Assembly: GCA_024743315.1 (NCBI GenBank)
Contig: JANSWU010000004.1
Coordinates: 387,106 to 451,105, forward strand
Direction: 5' to 3'
Origin: Hyphomonadaceae bacterium
GTDB lineage: Bacteria > Pseudomonadota > Alphaproteobacteria > Caulobacterales > Hyphomonadaceae
Length of the DNA: 64,000 nucleotides
Made by a program: the position numbers and the translations under genes. Position 1 is the stretch's first letter. Every line of letters begins with the position of its first letter. The notes under the pieces are model-generated. The model did not search any database. It was not told the DNA's origin and was given only the letters and a program-made list of their open reading frames with translations. This document shows, in pieces, positions 6,887 to 13,219 of this stretch.

Positions 6887-6904
6887 TAGTTGCATCTGCA
6901 ACTA
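6887..6904. promoter_or_regulatory. Perfect palindrome upstream of HPPD, candidate operator
   Basis: TAGTTGCA-TC-TGCAACTA, two perfect 8-bp arms with a 2-bp centre, 55 bases before the HPPD start and 49 before the divergent beta-lactamase-like gene. Length and symmetry suit a dimeric winged-helix repressor such as MarR. No regulator gene is adjacent, so the binding protein is unknown. Confidence 0.6.
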
Positions 6905-6952
6905 TATGGAAAAAGGCTGGCGTCAAGCCGCGATGCGGTTCAAAACGCGTCT

Positions 6953-7723
6953 ATGTCTGCGCAGGCCTTACAGTCGCTTTGTGATCGTTTTGCTCTCGGT
7001 CAGGGCAAGATCTCACTATTGGTCGAGGCCAAATCGGATCCGTCACTCTGCGCTGCGGTGAATGCTGATGCGCGGCTTCCATCCGCCAGTGTGATCAAGA
7101 TTGCCGTGGCTTGCACGGCGGCTGACCTCGCCGCGCGCGGCGATATCGACCTGACGCAATCCATATCGCGCGGATCATTGGATGAGACCTTTTATTGCTC
7201 GATCCTGCACGCGTTTGACGCTGACGATCCGCTGACCCTGAAAGCCTTGATCGGCTTGATGCTGATCGTCAGTGACAACCCTGCAACCAGTGCGGTCCTC
7301 CAAACCGTTGGTATGGACAGGGTAAACAACTGGCTCGATCAGAATGGGTTGCAGGACACAAATCTCAGCCTTGGCTTTGAGGATGCGCATTTGGGGACGC
7401 CGCTGCGGGTCAATCTGACCACCGCGCGCGATTGTCTGACGCTTCTCAAGCGCGTTGATAGCGACCCCACTTATGCCTTCATCAAGCGCATGCTCGCCAA
7501 CAATCTGCGTAATGAACGGATTCCGAAACAGCTTCCAGACGACACTGTGATCGCCCACAAGACCGGTACACTCGCCGGTTTGGTGCATGATATCGCGATC
7601 ATCGAAAGCCCGATTGCGGCCTATTATCTCGTCGTGCTCGCGGATGAACTGGAAGACGACGCTGAGTTTGTGTGCGCGCTAAATGCGTTTTCGGCTGACC
7701 TGTATGAGATGATGACAGCCTGA
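6953..7723 (+). CDS. Class A beta-lactamase-like serine hydrolase, no signal peptide
   Basis: A 256-residue protein with the serine beta-lactamase/transpeptidase motifs in order: SVIK (SxxK, residues 46-49), SDN (107-109) and KTG (203-205). No signal peptide or lipobox is visible, although class A beta-lactamases are normally exported; it may be cytoplasmic. I chose the ATG at 6953; the only upstream in-frame start is a TTG inside the 6887-6904 palindrome. It may be a beta-lactamase, an esterase or a peptidase; resistance should not be assumed. It is divergent from HPPD and followed by repeats. Confidence 0.78.
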   Translation: MSAQALQSLCDRFALGQGKISLLVEAKSDPSLCAAVNADARLPSASVIKIAVACTAADLAARGDIDLTQSISRGSLDETFYCSILHAFDADDPLTLKALIGLMLIVSDNPATSAVLQTVGMDRVNNWLDQNGLQDTNLSLGFEDAHLGTPLRVNLTTARDCLTLLKRVDSDPTYAFIKRMLANNLRNERIPKQLPDDTVIAHKTGTLAGLVHDIAIIESPIAAYYLVVLADELEDDAEFVCALNAFSADLYEMMTA

Positions 7724-8136: not shown

Positions 8137-9315
8137 TCAGCGTCGCTGCAGCAATCGCGCATCCTGCGGCACTGGGTCTTCGAAACTCTTGATCGTGTCA
8201 GCCGTCGCCTCGTCGATCAGGTGCTGGATCAGTTCCGGGAACAGCATGGGCTCAGGCGCGGCTTCCCAGAGGAAGAAGCCATAAGACCCTGGAATCGCAT
8301 TGATCTCGTTGAACCAGAGCTCGCCGGTTTCCTTATTTGACATGAAATCAATCCGAGGTGCCCCTCGTTTCCCGAGCGCGTTAAACGTTCGCCGGGCATA
8401 GTCATAGATTTTTTCCTGCAGGTCCTTCGGTATGTCCGGATTGATGTCTCGGGTCAGCGACAGCATGCCTTCCGACGGTTTGAACGTGCCTTTCGTACCG
8501 CCATCGGCCGACAGATATTTTTCGCGGAAATCGAGCACCTCGGCCCCGGATTTCGGGCGTTCAATCGCGGAGAGTTTGATCTCCTCGCCCTTGGCAATCA
8601 TGGCGATATTGTACTCGACCAGGTTCTGCACCTGAGGTTCAATCAAGGCCAGCGTGTCTTTCTTCAAGACATATTCGACCAGCGGCCAGACATCTTCGGC
8701 AGTCTTGGCGAGGCCAACGCCGACGCTCGAGCCGAGATTGGCCGGTTTGACGATGACAGGAAAACCGAGCGCCGCCTGTACGTCCGGCAAAATCATCTCA
8801 GCATCTTCAATCTGTGAACGCCCGACTGTGATATGCGGCAGGACATTCACGCCCGCCTCCTTGACCAGGGCTTTGGTGACATCCTTGCGCATCGCGATCG
8901 AAGATGAGGACGCACTGAGGCCGGTGACCGGGATGCCCAAAAGTTCGAAATAGGCCTGGATGCGGCCATCTTCGCCAAACGTGCCGTGGAAGACCGGCAA
9001 GACGCAATCGACCGGCTGGATCACCGTCCCATCCATAGCGCTGAGCACTGGACCATTGTCGCCCCAGCGAAACGTCACTTGCTGCCCCACAGGCGGGCGC
9101 GGCTTGTATTTGCTGATATCGCGCAGGCTGGCGCCGATCCAAAATCGGTTGGCGAAATCCATATAGACCGGCAAAACTTCGACATGGCGAACGTCCGCTG
9201 CATCCATCAATTGATGGGCGCTGACGACGCTGACATCATGCTCAGAGCTGGCGCCGCCAAAAATAATCACAGTTTTCAGAGATTTTGCCAATTTTTCACC
9301 AGTCTTCTGTCTCAA
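8137..9315 (-). CDS. D-alanine-D-alanine ligase homologue, variant acceptor pocket
   Basis: ATP-grasp ligase of the Ddl family, up to 392 residues. Aligning by motif with E. coli DdlB: SSEHDVS gives the N-terminal Glu, GSSVGV the phosphate loop, K266-Y267 match K215-Y216, R321 and D323 match R255 and D257, and E337/N339 match the metal ligands E270/N272. The segment after NAIPG reads SYGFFLWE instead of MTSHSLVP, so the Ser that holds the second D-Ala carboxylate (S281) is F348. No ATG exists near the start: TTG at 9315 or TTG at 9291 (GGTGA upstream) are the choices. Divergent from the alpha/beta hydrolase and membrane Mur ligase genes. Confidence 0.85.
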   Translation of the reverse strand: MRQKTGEKLAKSLKTVIIFGGASSEHDVSVVSAHQLMDAADVRHVEVLPVYMDFANRFWIGASLRDISKYKPRPPVGQQVTFRWGDNGPVLSAMDGTVIQPVDCVLPVFHGTFGEDGRIQAYFELLGIPVTGLSASSSSIAMRKDVTKALVKEAGVNVLPHITVGRSQIEDAEMILPDVQAALGFPVIVKPANLGSSVGVGLAKTAEDVWPLVEYVLKKDTLALIEPQVQNLVEYNIAMIAKGEEIKLSAIERPKSGAEVLDFREKYLSADGGTKGTFKPSEGMLSLTRDINPDIPKDLQEKIYDYARRTFNALGKRGAPRIDFMSNKETGELWFNEINAIPGSYGFFLWEAAPEPMLFPELIQHLIDEATADTIKSFEDPVPQDARLLQRR

Positions 9316-9366
9316 GTGGCTCTACTGTATTTAAGAGCGAATCGCCGAGCGGGATCAAGCGCACCT

Positions 9367-10128
9367 ATGAGCACTGAAGTGAAGCCAAATTTGGTTCAAA
9401 TTGGGGACAGGTCGAAACCCGCTATTGTGTTCGGACACGGCTGGGGGCGCTCCTATCGTGATTTTATTCCTGTCGCCGAAGCGCTGGCCCCCGTCGCCAG
9501 CTCTTATCTGGTCGACTTTCCGGGCTTTGGCGACTCCCCGCGCCCGGACGAGACCTGGGGCACCGAGGACTATGCCGAGCACATGGTCAGGATCCTGCGA
9601 GAGACCTATGGGCTGACATCCTACACATGGGTTGGTCATTCCTTTGGCGGGCGGGTCGGCATGCGCATCGCGGCGCAACATCCAGACCTGATTCAGCACC
9701 TGATCCTTGTTGCCTCCGCCGGCGTGCCGCGGACTCGGACACGCTTTCAAGAATGGCGCGGCAAGCAGCGCAGCTGGGCCTTCAAAGCGCGCAAAGCCCT
9801 CGCTGGCTCGCCGGACGCCCTTGATGCTCTGGAAAAGCAGTATGGCAGCGTTGATTATGTCCACAGCAAAGAGATCGGCATGCGGGACATTTTTGTCCGC
9901 ACGGTGAACGAGGACCAATCAGAGACGCTTGGCCAAATCAAATGCCCAACGACACTGATCTATGGCGGCCTCGATTTCGAAACCCCAGTGGAAGTCGGGG
10001 AAAAAATTGCTGCCGGCATCTCGGATTCGAAGCTCATCGTGTGCCCGCACTATGACCATATTTCGATCCTCGATCGCGGACGCCACCAGATCGCGCTCAG
10101 CGTCAAAGAACGATTGGTCGCGGCATGA
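9367..10128 (+). CDS. Alpha/beta hydrolase
   Basis: A 253-residue alpha/beta-hydrolase. VGHSFGGRVGM is the nucleophile elbow (Ser), FGHGWGRSYRD forms the oxyanion-hole region, YGGLDFETP carries the acid and CPHYDHISIL the catalytic His. No signal peptide is seen, so it is probably cytoplasmic. The substrate is unknown. The start ATG overlaps nothing upstream, and its stop overlaps the ATG of the Mur ligase gene (ATGA), implying coupled translation. The pairing with a Ddl homologue and a Mur ligase suggests action on a cell-wall-like amide or ester. Confidence 0.85.
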   Translation: MSTEVKPNLVQIGDRSKPAIVFGHGWGRSYRDFIPVAEALAPVASSYLVDFPGFGDSPRPDETWGTEDYAEHMVRILRETYGLTSYTWVGHSFGGRVGMRIAAQHPDLIQHLILVASAGVPRTRTRFQEWRGKQRSWAFKARKALAGSPDALDALEKQYGSVDYVHSKEIGMRDIFVRTVNEDQSETLGQIKCPTTLIYGGLDFETPVEVGEKIAAGISDSKLIVCPHYDHISILDRGRHQIALSVKERLVAA

Positions 10129-11720
10129 CATTTATTGCGCAACTCCCCTTCGCCGTGTTTTTTGCCAGCCTGATCGGCTTTGGCTGGGTCCGGATCAATA
10201 CGATCCTGACCTATTTCCAGCAGGAAGAATATGACAGCTCGCGGTTCCTCGGCGCGATTGTCCGGGTGCGGCTTTATGATTCCCTGGCCACCGTGGGGCT
10301 CGTGGCCCTGGCCATCGCCAGTGCCTTTATCGATCTCGGGCCGATTGGCTGGCTGTTCGCCGCTGCCCTGCTGGTGGCGATCGCCCTGCGCGAACGCGGT
10401 TATCGGTATAAGAAAAAGCTCGTGGTGACCGAACGGCTGAGACGCATTCGCTGGCTAACCCGGAGCCTGTTCGGCGTCATCCTGATGATGGTGCTGATCC
10501 ACCCGATCGCCGTCTTCCTGATCATTCAGTCTATCCCGTTCCTGATCATGCTCGCCAATCGAATGTTGCGACCGATGCAAGAGCAAATCAATCAGGGCTT
10601 TGTCGACGAGGCCATGGACAAACTCAAATCCTATCAGCCCATCACCATCGGCATTACCGGGTCCTTCGGCAAAACCACGACCAAGCACATTCTGGCCGAA
10701 GTATTGGCCAGCGCCGGGCCGGTCTTTTACAGCCCTGGTAGCATCAACACGGTGCTTGGCCTGACCCGCAATATTCGCGAGAAACTGCAGCGCGGGCACA
10801 AATTCTTCATCGCCGAGATGGGCGCCTATGGCATTGGATCGATCAAGCGCCTGTGCGATTTCGCGGATCCTGAATATGCCATCGTCACCGCCATTGGCGA
10901 TGCCCATACGGAACGCTTTGGCAGCATCGACAATATCGCCATCGCCAAGTCTGAACTGGTTGAGCACGTCACCGCCCGCGGTGGCAAAGCCGTGATCCCG
11001 CACGAGATCCTGTCACACAAACCCTTTGCTGATCTCAGAAAGGCTCACCCGGGTCTGGTCAAGACGGTGGGGCAGGAACCGGACGCCGACTTTGTCATCG
11101 TCAAAGCCGAGCTCGAAGACAGCAATTGGGCGATTGAACTCTGGCCACAAGGCGCGCCGGATAACGCCCGGATCACGTATACGCTGCCGCTCCTGGGTGA
11201 CCATAATATCCTCAATTCTGCGCTTTCCGTCGTGCTGACCTTCCTGATCAGCCCGGCCACAGCGACCCGCATCGCGGCCTTCTCCAAAGATGTCGAACAA
11301 GTCCAGCACCGTCTCCAGAAAATCGATAATCCGGGCCAGCCACTTATTCTCGACGATGCTTACAATTCGAACGAGATCGGCTTCAAAAATGCGGTTTCAG
11401 TGCTGCGCAAGTTGGCCGACCAACGCGGCGGCCGCGCCATCCTGGTGACCCCCGGGGTCGCCGAGCTTGGTCTTGAGCATGACCGGGTTCATCATCGACT
11501 AGGGACATTCGCCACGCAGCATTGCGATCATGTTGTCGCGATTAACCCGGCGCGGATCGAAGCCTTTGTCAGCGCCCTCGATGGCGACAAAGTCGAAATC
11601 CACACGCGCGCCTCATTCGCAGATGCACGCCGCCTCGTCAGTGACTTTGCAGACGAGAAAGATGTCGTTCTGTACGAGAATGATCTGCCGGACCTGCTGG
11701 AAGAAACCCGCCTGCTCTAA
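10125..11720 (+). CDS. Membrane-anchored Mur ligase (MurF-like)
   Basis: 531 residues. The first 175 hold about four hydrophobic segments (near residues 3-25, 47-66, 72-88, 105-135) with basic loops. A Mur ligase core follows: GITGSFGKTTT at 176-186 is the ATP P-loop, FIAEMGAYGIGS the central-domain motif, LLGDHNILNS and LDDAYNSN the C-terminal MurF-type motifs. Canonical MurF has instead a soluble N-terminal domain that binds UDP-MurNAc-tripeptide, so this enzyme must recognise its substrate differently and works at the membrane. It overlaps the hydrolase by ATGA. An ATP-dependent amide ligase is certain by family; its substrate is not. Confidence 0.85.
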   Translation: MTFIAQLPFAVFFASLIGFGWVRINTILTYFQQEEYDSSRFLGAIVRVRLYDSLATVGLVALAIASAFIDLGPIGWLFAAALLVAIALRERGYRYKKKLVVTERLRRIRWLTRSLFGVILMMVLIHPIAVFLIIQSIPFLIMLANRMLRPMQEQINQGFVDEAMDKLKSYQPITIGITGSFGKTTTKHILAEVLASAGPVFYSPGSINTVLGLTRNIREKLQRGHKFFIAEMGAYGIGSIKRLCDFADPEYAIVTAIGDAHTERFGSIDNIAIAKSELVEHVTARGGKAVIPHEILSHKPFADLRKAHPGLVKTVGQEPDADFVIVKAELEDSNWAIELWPQGAPDNARITYTLPLLGDHNILNSALSVVLTFLISPATATRIAAFSKDVEQVQHRLQKIDNPGQPLILDDAYNSNEIGFKNAVSVLRKLADQRGGRAILVTPGVAELGLEHDRVHHRLGTFATQHCDHVVAINPARIEAFVSALDGDKVEIHTRASFADARRLVSDFADEKDVVLYENDLPDLLEETRLL

Positions 11721-11722
11721 AT

Positions 11723-12292
11723 TCAGGCTGCGCGCTGCACCGCCTGGATCCGGTTCAACTCTTCATGCAAAAGATCGAGCGGGGATCCGGCTTCAGCAAG
11801 CACATCGCCGGTCCAGTTCTCAGACGAAAACCGTCCGATCGCCATATCGCGCGCGCGACTGACACGGCTTTTCACGGTCCCTGCTGAACAGCCAAGCACG
11901 TCGGCGGCCTCTTCATAGGTAAACCCTGCTGCGACAACCAATAAGAAGGCGTCCTTCTGAGCCGCTTTCAAAGACTGCACCGCGCTCAGCATTCGCTTCA
12001 GGTCTGTCCGTTGTTCCAGATCACAATTGGCGATCAAATAGTCATCTATGTCATCCGTATGATCCGTGTCACGGACACGCTCGGATCGCAATTGCTGATA
12101 ATATTCATTGCGAACTATTCGGAAAAGCCAGGCGCGCAAAGGACCCTTTTTCGGGTCGAACTGCGCCCGGTTTTGCCATGCCTTCAAACAGGCATTCTGA
12201 ACGATATCGTCAGCCCGCGAGATGTCGGGGCTTAACATCCGGGCATAGGCGCGCAAATCAGGTAAGAAGGTTCCAAGCTCGTTCGAAAACAT
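11723..12292 (-). CDS. ECF sigma factor, EcfG-like (ECF15 type)
   Basis: A 189-residue RNA polymerase sigma factor. Region 2 is LRAYARMLSPDISRADDIVQ and ACLKAW...WLFRIVRNEYY; region 4 is AGFTYEEAADVLGCSAGTVK and SRVSRARD, which resembles the G-(F/Y)-SYEEAA-x-GTxKSRxxRAR signature of EcfG, the alphaproteobacterial general-stress sigma factor. It is a paralogue of the gene at 12641 on the opposite strand. Converges 2 bases from the Mur ligase stop. No PhyR-type response regulator is adjacent; a NepR-like gene lies at 23798. Confidence 0.85.
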   Translation of the reverse strand: MFSNELGTFLPDLRAYARMLSPDISRADDIVQNACLKAWQNRAQFDPKKGPLRAWLFRIVRNEYYQQLRSERVRDTDHTDDIDDYLIANCDLEQRTDLKRMLSAVQSLKAAQKDAFLLVVAAGFTYEEAADVLGCSAGTVKSRVSRARDMAIGRFSSENWTGDVLAEAGSPLDLLHEELNRIQAVQRAA

Positions 12293-12640: not shown

Positions 12641-13219
12641 ATGTTTTCGCAAGAGCTTGAACGGCTGATTCCAGAACTTCGCGCCTATGCGCGCATGTTA
12701 AGCGCTGATCGCGATCGCGCCGATGATATTGTTCAAAACGCCTGCCTCAAAGCCTGGAAAGCGCGCCGCACTTTTGATCCCAAGAAAGGCTCGTTCAAAG
12801 CCTGGATGTTTGTCATCACGCGCAATGAATTCTTGCAGGATGTCCGAAAATCAAGGCGGACGGACACGTATTGTCCGAGTGCATTTGAAGCCACCCTGAC
12901 CGAAGAATGCCAATTGGCGAGTCGGGCGGAATGCTCCGAAGCGATCCGCCAATTGTTCGCCCTCAACCAGGATCAGCGCGATGTTTTCATTCTCGTGATT
13001 GCCGTCGGATATTCCTATGAGGAAGCCGCTAAAATCCTGAACTGCTCTGTTGGAACCGTGAAAAGCCGAATTAACCGCGCCCGCGCCAAGCTGATCGAGA
13101 AATTGTCTCAGGATAATGTACGCGATCCCTCAGGGTCGGCTCCCGGCATAGAGGATGGCTTCCATCAGGTTCAGGACGTTTTCGGTTACGCCGATCAAAT
13201 TGTCCGGCGTGCGGCTTAA
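12641..13219 (+). CDS. ECF sigma factor, EcfG-like paralogue
   Basis: 192 residues, clearly paralogous to the sigma factor at 11723 (both start MFS-x-EL and share RADDIVQNACLKAW and FDPKKG). Region 4 is VGYSYEEAAKILNCSVGTVK followed by SRINRARAKL, again EcfG-like. It would direct RNA polymerase to GGAAC/CGTT-type promoters if the EcfG assignment holds; one such motif lies 83 bases after its stop, before a predicted small RNA. Region 2 contains WMFVITRNEFLQD, the polymerase-contact segment. No dedicated transmembrane anti-sigma gene follows. Confidence 0.85.
   Translation: MFSQELERLIPELRAYARMLSADRDRADDIVQNACLKAWKARRTFDPKKGSFKAWMFVITRNEFLQDVRKSRRTDTYCPSAFEATLTEECQLASRAECSEAIRQLFALNQDQRDVFILVIAVGYSYEEAAKILNCSVGTVKSRINRARAKLIEKLSQDNVRDPSGSAPGIEDGFHQVQDVFGYADQIVRRAA

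What the first reader, a model, noticed from the sequence alone, without database searches (positions are those of the whole stretch)
8137..11720. Ddl homologue, alpha/beta hydrolase and membrane Mur ligase form a compact cell-wall-like module
A Ddl-family ligase is divergent by about 50 bases from an alpha/beta hydrolase gene that overlaps (ATGA) a MurF-like ligase. Normal ddl and murF belong to the division and cell-wall cluster, which is absent here, so these look like additional, specialised copies. I recall similar trios (Ddl subfamily with NxIPGS...LWE, Mur ligase, hydrolase) in some Gram-positive genomes but cannot cite a function. A pathway making or editing a D-amino-acid conjugate on a membrane-bound acceptor is a plausible hypothesis.
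Basis: partly seen in the sequence, partly recalled or inferred. Interest (0 to 1): 0.75.

Follow-up and report, generated by a model that had tools for sequence, protein, structure and literature searches.

The report
Membrane MurF module replacing murF and ddl
Three neighbouring genes, found together in several bacterial phyla, appear to have replaced the two standard enzymes that build and attach the last two amino acids of cell-wall precursors, and the attaching enzyme is now built into the membrane, which suggests that the order of a textbook pathway may change.

Summary
The trio is real: a Ddl-type ligase (8137-9315, -), an alpha/beta hydrolase (ABH, 9367-10128, +) and a Mur ligase (10125-11720, +). 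They are not: this 99.93%-complete genome shows no other Ddl and no other MurF. Its division/cell-wall (dcw) cluster runs murE-mraY and lacks ddl. The Mur ligase has MurF's catalytic domains 2 and 3, but membrane helices replace the UDP-binding domain 1 (AlphaFold pLDDT 91.8).

In the same genus 9 of 29 genomes carry this "TM-MurF" and none of the 9 shows canonical murF. All 12 of the other 20 that I inspected keep murF and ddl. Vestiges of murF (8 of 9, a ninth weak) and ddl (4 of 9) remain. In other alphaproteobacteria the trio sits in the dcw at the ddl place (2 genomes), or MurF has lost its ATP site (5). ABH-TM-MurF-Ddl is also a conserved neighbourhood in Bacteroidales, Clostridia, Melainabacteria and others.

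Best explanation: an alternative module that makes and attaches the terminal dipeptide of the peptidoglycan stem, probably on membrane-linked tripeptide precursor (inferred from the missing UDP domain, as in MurT). Replacement is well supported; lipid acceptor, dipeptide identity and hydrolase role are not shown. My paper searches found no description.

The parts
8137..9315 (-). Ddl of the trio: ATP-grasp D-Ala-D-Ala-ligase family, the only Ddl found in the genome
   Evidence: Pfam PF01820/PF07478; TIGR01205 218.1 bits, below its cut-off 245.65; only PF01820 hit in the genome
8458..8544 (-). long omega loop of the trio Ddl (residues 258-286), poorly predicted (pLDDT under 50)
   Evidence: alignment, AlphaFold
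8263..8292 (-). PGSYGFFLWE motif (residues 342-351); Phe348 aligns with E. coli DdlB Ser281
   Evidence: DdlB letters and residue roles recalled; S344 and L349 invariant, W350 at least 90% in the 36 rows
9367..10128 (+). alpha/beta hydrolase (ABH) of the trio; triad Ser95-Asp206-His234 (numbering, which starts 3 codons before the ATG)
   Evidence: Pfam; the three residues invariant in 34 aligned homologues; their role as triad is from family knowledge
10125..11720 (+). TM-MurF: MurF-type ligase with predicted membrane domain, the only MurF-type protein found in the genome
10125..10640 (+). N-terminal membrane domain of TM-MurF (residues 1-172): helices 2-33, 53-69, 74-91, 103-124, 137-170, in place of Mur domain 1; FQQEEY-like motif in 48 of 60 and KK.L..T.R-like motif in 51 of 60 homologues
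10653..11234 (+). Mur ligase middle (ATP) domain of TM-MurF (residues 177-370), with the P-loop GSFGKT at residues 179-184
11307..11672 (+). Mur ligase C-terminal domain of TM-MurF (residues 395-516)

Best explanation
The trio is an alternative, self-contained module for the terminal dipeptide of peptidoglycan precursors, and it has replaced canonical ddl and murF in this bacterium and in many others. (1) The soluble Ddl joins two D-amino acids, most likely two D-alanines [inferred]. (2) TM-MurF uses ATP and MurF chemistry to couple the dipeptide to the stem tripeptide made by MurE [inferred from family and displacement]. (3) TM-MurF lacks the domain that holds the uridine of UDP-MurNAc and carries five predicted membrane helices with conserved polar loops instead, so its acceptor is probably the lipid-linked tripeptide (lipid I or II) at the inner membrane face. 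MraY would then act before, not after, the dipeptide is added [inferred; about 45%]. (4) ABH, translationally coupled to TM-MurF and with its catalytic residues kept, is an accessory hydrolase, perhaps one that edits wrong or unused dipeptide or precursor [speculative]. Shown by computation: sole Ddl and MurF found in the genome, domain architecture, conserved neighbourhood, mutual exclusion with canonical murF within the genus, relics of the displaced genes. Not shown: any activity.
Against: MraY of 9 trio genomes against 12 canonical ones of the genus shows no column that the other trio lineages consistently share, so there is no sign that MraY adapted to a tripeptide substrate. Some genomes keep canonical MurF together with the trio (G174, G440, G256; Kordiimonas, a Bacilli MAG, a Tissierellia MAG), so the module is not always a replacement. 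The membrane helices might only tether the enzyme. The Ddl lost the Ser281 equivalent, so the dipeptide need not be D-Ala-D-Ala. In G118 and G333 the only Ala_racemase_N hit is a 219-221 aa frame of about 71 bits, too short for a racemase, so their D-Ala source is unexplained; Chamaesiphon (G449) shows no S11 hit. In 3 of 31 class genomes the Ddl lies apart from ABH/TM-MurF, in 1 TM-MurF lies apart, in 1 neither partner was seen. Many comparison genomes are incomplete MAGs, including three of the nine genus members (84-93% complete).
Confidence: 0.7

Rival explanations
1. TM-MurF is a MurF that has exchanged its UDP-binding domain for a membrane tether but still acts on soluble UDP-MurNAc-tripeptide. 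The pathway order is unchanged and the trio is a plain displacement of two enzymes.
For: Same nearest relatives and catalytic motifs as MurF. No consistent MraY change linked to the trio. Genomes that keep canonical MurF and the trio with a single Ddl suggest a shared dipeptide.
Against: Domain 1, which holds the uridine in Mur ligases, is not in the model, and the membrane domain carries invariant or nearly invariant polar residues (Q32, Y36, K96, K97, T102, R104), more than a tether needs.
Confidence: 0.35
2. The module makes a different stem end, such as D-Ala-D-Ser, D-Ala-D-lactate or another D-residue. That would explain why both enzymes that handle the dipeptide were exchanged together.
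For: Co-replacement of exactly ddl and murF with the other dcw genes kept. Phe in place of Ser281 and a longer omega loop in the Ddl; KGS near the MurF C-terminus replaced by NDLxD in 58 of 60.
Against: The omega-loop KY pair and the equivalents of R255, D257, E270 and N272 are kept. VanA/B/C-type models score far below their cut-offs (the canonical Ddl of G002 does so too). None of the three genes is vanH- or vanX-like; the rest of the genome was not searched for them. S11 D,D-carboxypeptidase-family hits are kept in 13 of 14.
Confidence: 0.2
3. One reading: extra, specialised copies that build a D-amino-acid conjugate beside normal peptidoglycan synthesis.
For: In a few genomes canonical MurF is present as well.
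Against: No canonical ddl or murF found in this genome or in its 8 trio relatives of the genus; relics of the lost genes.
Confidence: 0.03
4. The bacterium makes peptidoglycan from tripeptide precursors without MurF, and the trio serves another polymer.
For: No activity has been shown for any member of the trio. Two trio genomes (G118, G333) show no racemase-length alanine racemase hit.
Against: FtsI in the dcw, alanine racemase-length hits in 12 of 14 and S11 hits in 13 of 14 trio genomes tested, this genome included; the trio sits inside the dcw in G376 and G295.
Confidence: 0.05

Closest known systems
MurF, UDP-N-acetylmuramoyl-tripeptide--D-alanyl-D-alanine ligase (PDB 4qf5, 3zl8, 1gg4)
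   Same: Domains 2 and 3, P-loop, DDxYN motif; best sequence and structure match
   Different: No domain 1 for UDP-MurNAc; five-helix membrane domain instead; KGS replaced by NDLxD; below the TIGR01143 cut-off (186.9 against 288.6 bits)
DdlA/DdlB, D-alanine--D-alanine ligase
   Same: Both Pfam domains, KY of the omega loop, ATP-grasp catalytic residues
   Different: About 390-445 aa, long omega loop, PGSxGxFLWE with Phe for Ser281; below the TIGR01205 cut-off in the window (218.1 against 245.65), although trio Ddls of many Bacteroidales and Clostridia genomes pass it
MurT/GatD, lipid II isoglutaminyl synthase
   Different: Works with the glutaminase partner GatD and amidates D-Glu; here the partners are Ddl and ABH
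MglA, a distant MurG homologue reported to replace MurG in Streptomyces coelicolor (PMC8092295, outline with short abstract and section headings seen)
   Same: An alternative enzyme for a core peptidoglycan step
   Different: Another step (lipid II synthesis) and another gene family

Membership tests
canonical MurF | Mur ligase middle domain with P-loop GxxGK[ST] and a C-terminal domain | tested here: met
   P-loop in 58 of 60 aligned TM-MurFs
canonical MurF | N-terminal domain 1 that binds UDP-MurNAc | tested here: not met
   No Pfam domain in residues 1-176; helical membrane domain in the AlphaFold model; hydropathy; TIGR01143 matched only from profile position 68
canonical MurF | score over the curated TIGR01143 cut-off | tested here: not met
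   186.9 bits against 288.6; the canonical MurF of G002, same genus, scores 323.9
canonical MurF | adds D-Ala-D-Ala to UDP-MurNAc-tripeptide | not testable with these tools
   needs an enzyme assay
D-Ala-D-Ala ligase (Ddl) | Dala_Dala_lig_N and _C domains | tested here: met
D-Ala-D-Ala ligase (Ddl) | omega-loop KY pair and equivalents of E. coli R255, D257, E270, N272 | tested here: met
   invariant K266, Y267, R321, D323, E337, N339; E. coli numbers and roles recalled
D-Ala-D-Ala ligase (Ddl) | Ser281 that contacts the carboxylate of the second D-Ala (role recalled) | tested here: not met
   Phe348 in its place; invariant Ser344 nearby might substitute
D-Ala-D-Lac / D-Ala-D-Ser ligases of van clusters | score over a Van-type NCBIfam cut-off | tested here: not met
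   e.g. VanA 105.8 against 775, D_ala_D_ser 123.6 against 520
MurT/GatD | adjacent class I glutaminase GatD | tested here: not met
   the direct neighbours are a Beta-lactamase2-family gene, the Ddl, ABH and an ECF sigma factor
alpha/beta hydrolase | Ser-Asp-His triad and fold domain | tested here: met

The most novel reading that the evidence does not exclude
A pan-bacterial variant of peptidoglycan synthesis in which the last two residues of the stem are added after MraY, on lipid I or lipid II, by a membrane-embedded MurF fed by its own Ddl and policed by a coupled hydrolase, possibly with a dipeptide other than D-Ala-D-Ala. UDP-MurNAc-pentapeptide would then not be a universal intermediate.
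Probability: 0.4. Interest if true: 0.93.

Novelty: new variant of a known kind. Interest (0 to 1): 0.8.

Why it matters
MurF and Ddl are treated as universal, essential and antibiotic-relevant steps. A widespread trio that replaces both would explain missing murF and ddl in many genomes, correct database names ('UDP-N-acetylmuramoyl-tripeptide ligase' on a protein without the UDP domain), and make a simple question testable: is the pentapeptide always finished in the cytosol before the lipid step? It would also tie an uncharacterised membrane domain and a hydrolase family to cell-wall synthesis.

Tried and rejected
MraY co-variation: MraY of 9 trio and 12 canonical genomes of the genus, checked against 9 other trio-only and 4 mixed genomes. 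12 columns separate the two genus sets; at some of them a part of the other trio genomes shares the trio residue (at most 5 of 9, column 132), at none do they share it consistently. Read as lineage drift; no support for a changed MraY substrate.

'MurF C-domain kept as a gene': I first read the 141-173 aa frames between murE and mraY of the nine genus trio genomes as a retained MurF domain. Rejected: only the end of the frame matches murF (43-53 residues in 8 of 9 genomes; at nucleotide level 40-43 bp in G000 and 88-128 bp in G015, the two tested), Pfam finds no Mur domain in the 4 of 9 frames scanned, and pairwise dN/dS is 0.43-1.22 over 36 pairs. It is a vestige plus the mraY leader.

Insertion of a TonB-receptor-like reverse gene (name by eye) as the cause of ddl loss: rejected, because 8 of 12 canonical genomes have the same gene beside an intact ddl.

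Longest-frame gene calls hid genes in G196, G425, G256, L152 and L153; the counts were therefore redone by frame-wise HMM search. wrongly counted L152 and L153 as lacking ABH; corrected. PF01168 hits were first taken as alanine racemase in 14 of 14; on recount two (G118, G333) are too short.

Papers: ten searches ran, eight on the topic and two for a precedent. From the listings none describes a membrane MurF or this trio; 'MuRF' the muscle protein swamps; the one 'MurF-like' passage I read (PMC4153887) is an archaeal gene in a table. Only open-licence PMC papers are searched, so absence from print is not shown.

Structure: VIA-align barely tests the first 25 residues, and one domain can fill its list, so I make no claim that the membrane domain has a new fold.
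Full report
WHAT IS THERE. The window holds a Ddl-family gene on the minus strand (8137-9315), divergent by 51-75 bp from an alpha/beta hydrolase (ABH, 9367-10128) whose stop overlaps the start of a Mur ligase (10125-11720) as ATGA. Pfam confirms all three. The best NCBIfam models are Ddl (218.1 bits, cut-off 245.65) and MurF (186.9 bits, cut-off 288.6, matched only from profile position 68), both under cut-off.

WHOSE GENOME. 

NOT EXTRA COPIES. The genome has 3.3 Mb in 8 contigs, 99.93% complete. PF01820 hits once, the trio Ddl; the other five PF07478 hits are much weaker (27.7-44.9 bits against 113.2) and lie in frames of 450-1145 aa, as expected of other ATP-grasp enzymes. PF08245 hits five proteins: the trio ligase, MurE, MurD and MurC of the dcw and FolC. 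In the dcw on contig 1, murE is followed after 381 bp by mraY, and no ddl was seen before ftsQ. NCBIfam confirms murE, mraY, murD, murC and murB over cut-off, and ftsW and murG as best hits just under it; the other dcw names are mine, from gene order and blast to a genus set.

A SWAP WITHIN ONE GENUS. Of 61 genomes (this one plus 60 relatives), 9, all among the 29 of the same genus, encode TM-MurF at 72-100% identity (G014 only from residue 245, at a contig end); none of the 9 gives a hit like canonical MurF. The Ddl follows the same pattern in 8 of the 9; the ninth, G026, is 84% complete and its contig starts inside the trio. None of the 9 has a murF or ddl over the TIGR01143/TIGR01205 cut-offs. 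I read the dcw of 12 of the 20 members without TM-MurF: all 12 have a murF (483-500 aa) and a ddl there. The murE-mraY gap is 381-414 bp in 8 of 9 trio genomes and 1435-1606 bp in 9 of 12 canonical ones; in the rest my gene caller lost one end. Just before mraY 8 of 9 trio genomes keep a stretch matching the last 43-53 residues of murF (the ninth, G014, only weakly), and 4 of 9 (G007, G014, G024, G028) keep 27-32 codons of ddl at 59-71% identity in the dcw region. I read these as scars of loss in place.

THE SAME SWAP ELSEWHERE IN THE CLASS. In an even draw of 385 genomes of the class (this one included), 22 others encode full-length or nearly full-length TM-MurF at 32-45% identity; one of them, G091, is partial with a stop inside. 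Over the 31 trio genomes (9 + 22), the three genes lie together in 22; in 4 a contig end cuts a consistent arrangement; in 3 the Ddl lies elsewhere; in 1 TM-MurF lies elsewhere; in 1 (3.9-kb contig) only TM-MurF is seen. In G376 and, across a contig end, G295 the trio stands between murB and ftsQ, the usual place of ddl. G176, G280, G118, G293 and G333 have a dcw read from ftsI to ftsZ without murF and ddl; in G425 and G098 murE is next to mraY in a less complete cluster. In G376 the murF place holds a 430-aa MurF-like frame without P-loop and DDxYN; in G309, G081, G212 and G110 a P-loop-less MurF piece is fused to MurE; in G225 a full fusion lacks DDxYN. G295 has a 152-aa frame there. Canonical MurF over cut-off remains in 3 of 31 (G174, G440, G256), and G277 has a full-length one under cut-off, 224.9 bits. 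G073, G128, G196 and G091 could not be judged at the murF place.

ACROSS PHYLA. ABH is directly upstream in 70, absent in 6, cut off in 4; Ddl is within 3.5 kb in 65, absent in 5, cut off in 10. I searched 30 of the 80 genomes with TIGR01143 (E up to 1e-40) and TIGR01205 (E up to 1e-30): 3 have a canonical MurF over cut-off (Kordiimonas, a Bacilli MAG, a Tissierellia MAG), 3 more have it in frames of 831-901 aa (presumably fusions), and 26 of 30 show a single Ddl hit (completeness not given). Blastochloris sulfoviridis, Actibacterium atlanticum and Pseudooceanicola nanhaiensis give one MurF-type and one Ddl hit each, on the trio's contig. Chamaesiphon polymorphus gives one of each, but on different contigs. 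In Pseudalkalibacillus decolorationis a second TIGR01143 hit (169.5 bits, 493 aa) scores much like the MurEs; I did not resolve it.

WHAT TM-MurF IS. A tree of 30 TM-MurFs, 7 alphaproteobacterial MurFs and three outgroup ligases puts TM-MurF on one side of a branch (support 94/94, not starred) and MurF on another (100/99); MurFs of other phyla were not included, and several rows have long branches. AlphaFold (60 rows, pLDDT 91.8, pTM 0.83) gives helices 2-33, 53-69, 74-91, 103-124 and 137-170, then Mur domains 2 and 3; hydropathy marks much the same stretches as membrane segments. The best PDB matches are MurFs. Catalytic motifs are kept (P-loop 58 of 60, DDxYN 58 of 60), while canonical KGS near the end is NDLxD in 58 of 60; the FQQEEY-like motif is found in 48 and the KK.L..T.R-like motif in 51 of 60. 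Q32, Y36, K96 and T102 are invariant, K97 and R104 nearly so. With five helices and a cytosolic ligase, both motifs should face the cytosol [inference].

WHAT THE OTHERS ARE. The Ddl keeps the KY pair and the ATP-grasp residues but has Phe348 where E. coli has Ser281, next to invariant Ser344, and a long omega loop with low model confidence. In ABH the Ser, Asp and His of the expected triad are invariant in 34 sequences, and so are Ser, Asp and Tyr of an SxDY motif.

MECHANISM. Two enzymes that share only the dipeptide are exchanged together while the rest of the dcw stays. That points to the terminal dipeptide step and suggests a changed dipeptide, channelling, or a changed acceptor. The lost UDP domain and gained membrane domain favour a lipid-linked acceptor. 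[quoted passage not shown]). Of 14 trio genomes tested, 13 have S11 carboxypeptidase-family hits (5 of 14 control genomes do) and 12 an alanine-racemase hit of racemase length, which fits D-Ala-D-Ala ends; G118 and G333 have only a short hit of that family, which I cannot explain. Against: MraY shows no consistent trio-linked change, and some genomes keep canonical MurF. My weights: replacement of canonical murF/ddl in this genome 0.93; lipid-linked acceptor 0.45; dipeptide other than D-Ala-D-Ala 0.2. The role of ABH is open.

NOVELTY. Where a source names these proteins it calls them MurF or 'Mur ligase family protein', apart from a few 'hypothetical protein' or 'Mur ligase middle domain' names. 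My searches listed no paper on a membrane MurF or on this trio, within open-licence PMC only. I file it as a new variant of a known kind: it appears to work like Ddl plus MurF, but TM-MurF fails the domain-1 test and is not a canonical MurF.

Noticed in passing
window 6890-7723 (+): A Beta-lactamase2-family serine hydrolase next to the Ddl gene, below the cut-off of all 17 NCBIfam beta-lactamase models that it matched. Found beside the trio in 7 of the 8 other trio genomes of the genus (the contig of the eighth, G026, is cut off there).
   Followed up: partly
L248:5056-6348 (G376); L251-L254 (G309, G081, G212, G110): MurF relics or pseudoenzymes at the murF place that keep the UDP-MurNAc-binding domain 1 but lack the P-loop; four are fused to the C-terminus of MurE. 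Open long frames suggest they may still do something, perhaps bind substrate beside the domain-1-less TM-MurF.
   Followed up: partly
L127:9474-9932 (G295): A 152-aa frame between murE and mraY that resembles the end of the G376 relic by eye, without a Pfam hit.
   Followed up: no
L250 (G174), L126/L249 (G440), L133/L257 (G256): Genomes with canonical MurF over cut-off and TM-MurF but a single Ddl, that of the trio: natural cases in which one Ddl must feed both ligases.
   Followed up: partly
G118:C18:1296-1910 and G333:C5:451002-451616: The only Ala_racemase_N hits of these two trio genomes are frames of 219-221 aa, too short for an alanine racemase; where their D-alanine comes from is open.
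   Followed up: no
L128:9054-10148 (G295): A second Ddl over the TIGR01205 cut-off, about 25-27% identical to the window's, besides the trio Ddl.
   Followed up: no
L251, L253, L254, L255, L259: dcw clusters of G309, G212, G110, G225 and G098 with mraY directly followed by ftsW and no murD hit there; murD was not sought elsewhere.
   Followed up: no
window 11723-12292 (-) and 12641-13219 (+): Two similar, divergent ECF-sigma-like genes right after TM-MurF; the first is beside the trio in all 8 other trio genomes of the genus, the second in 6.
   Followed up: no
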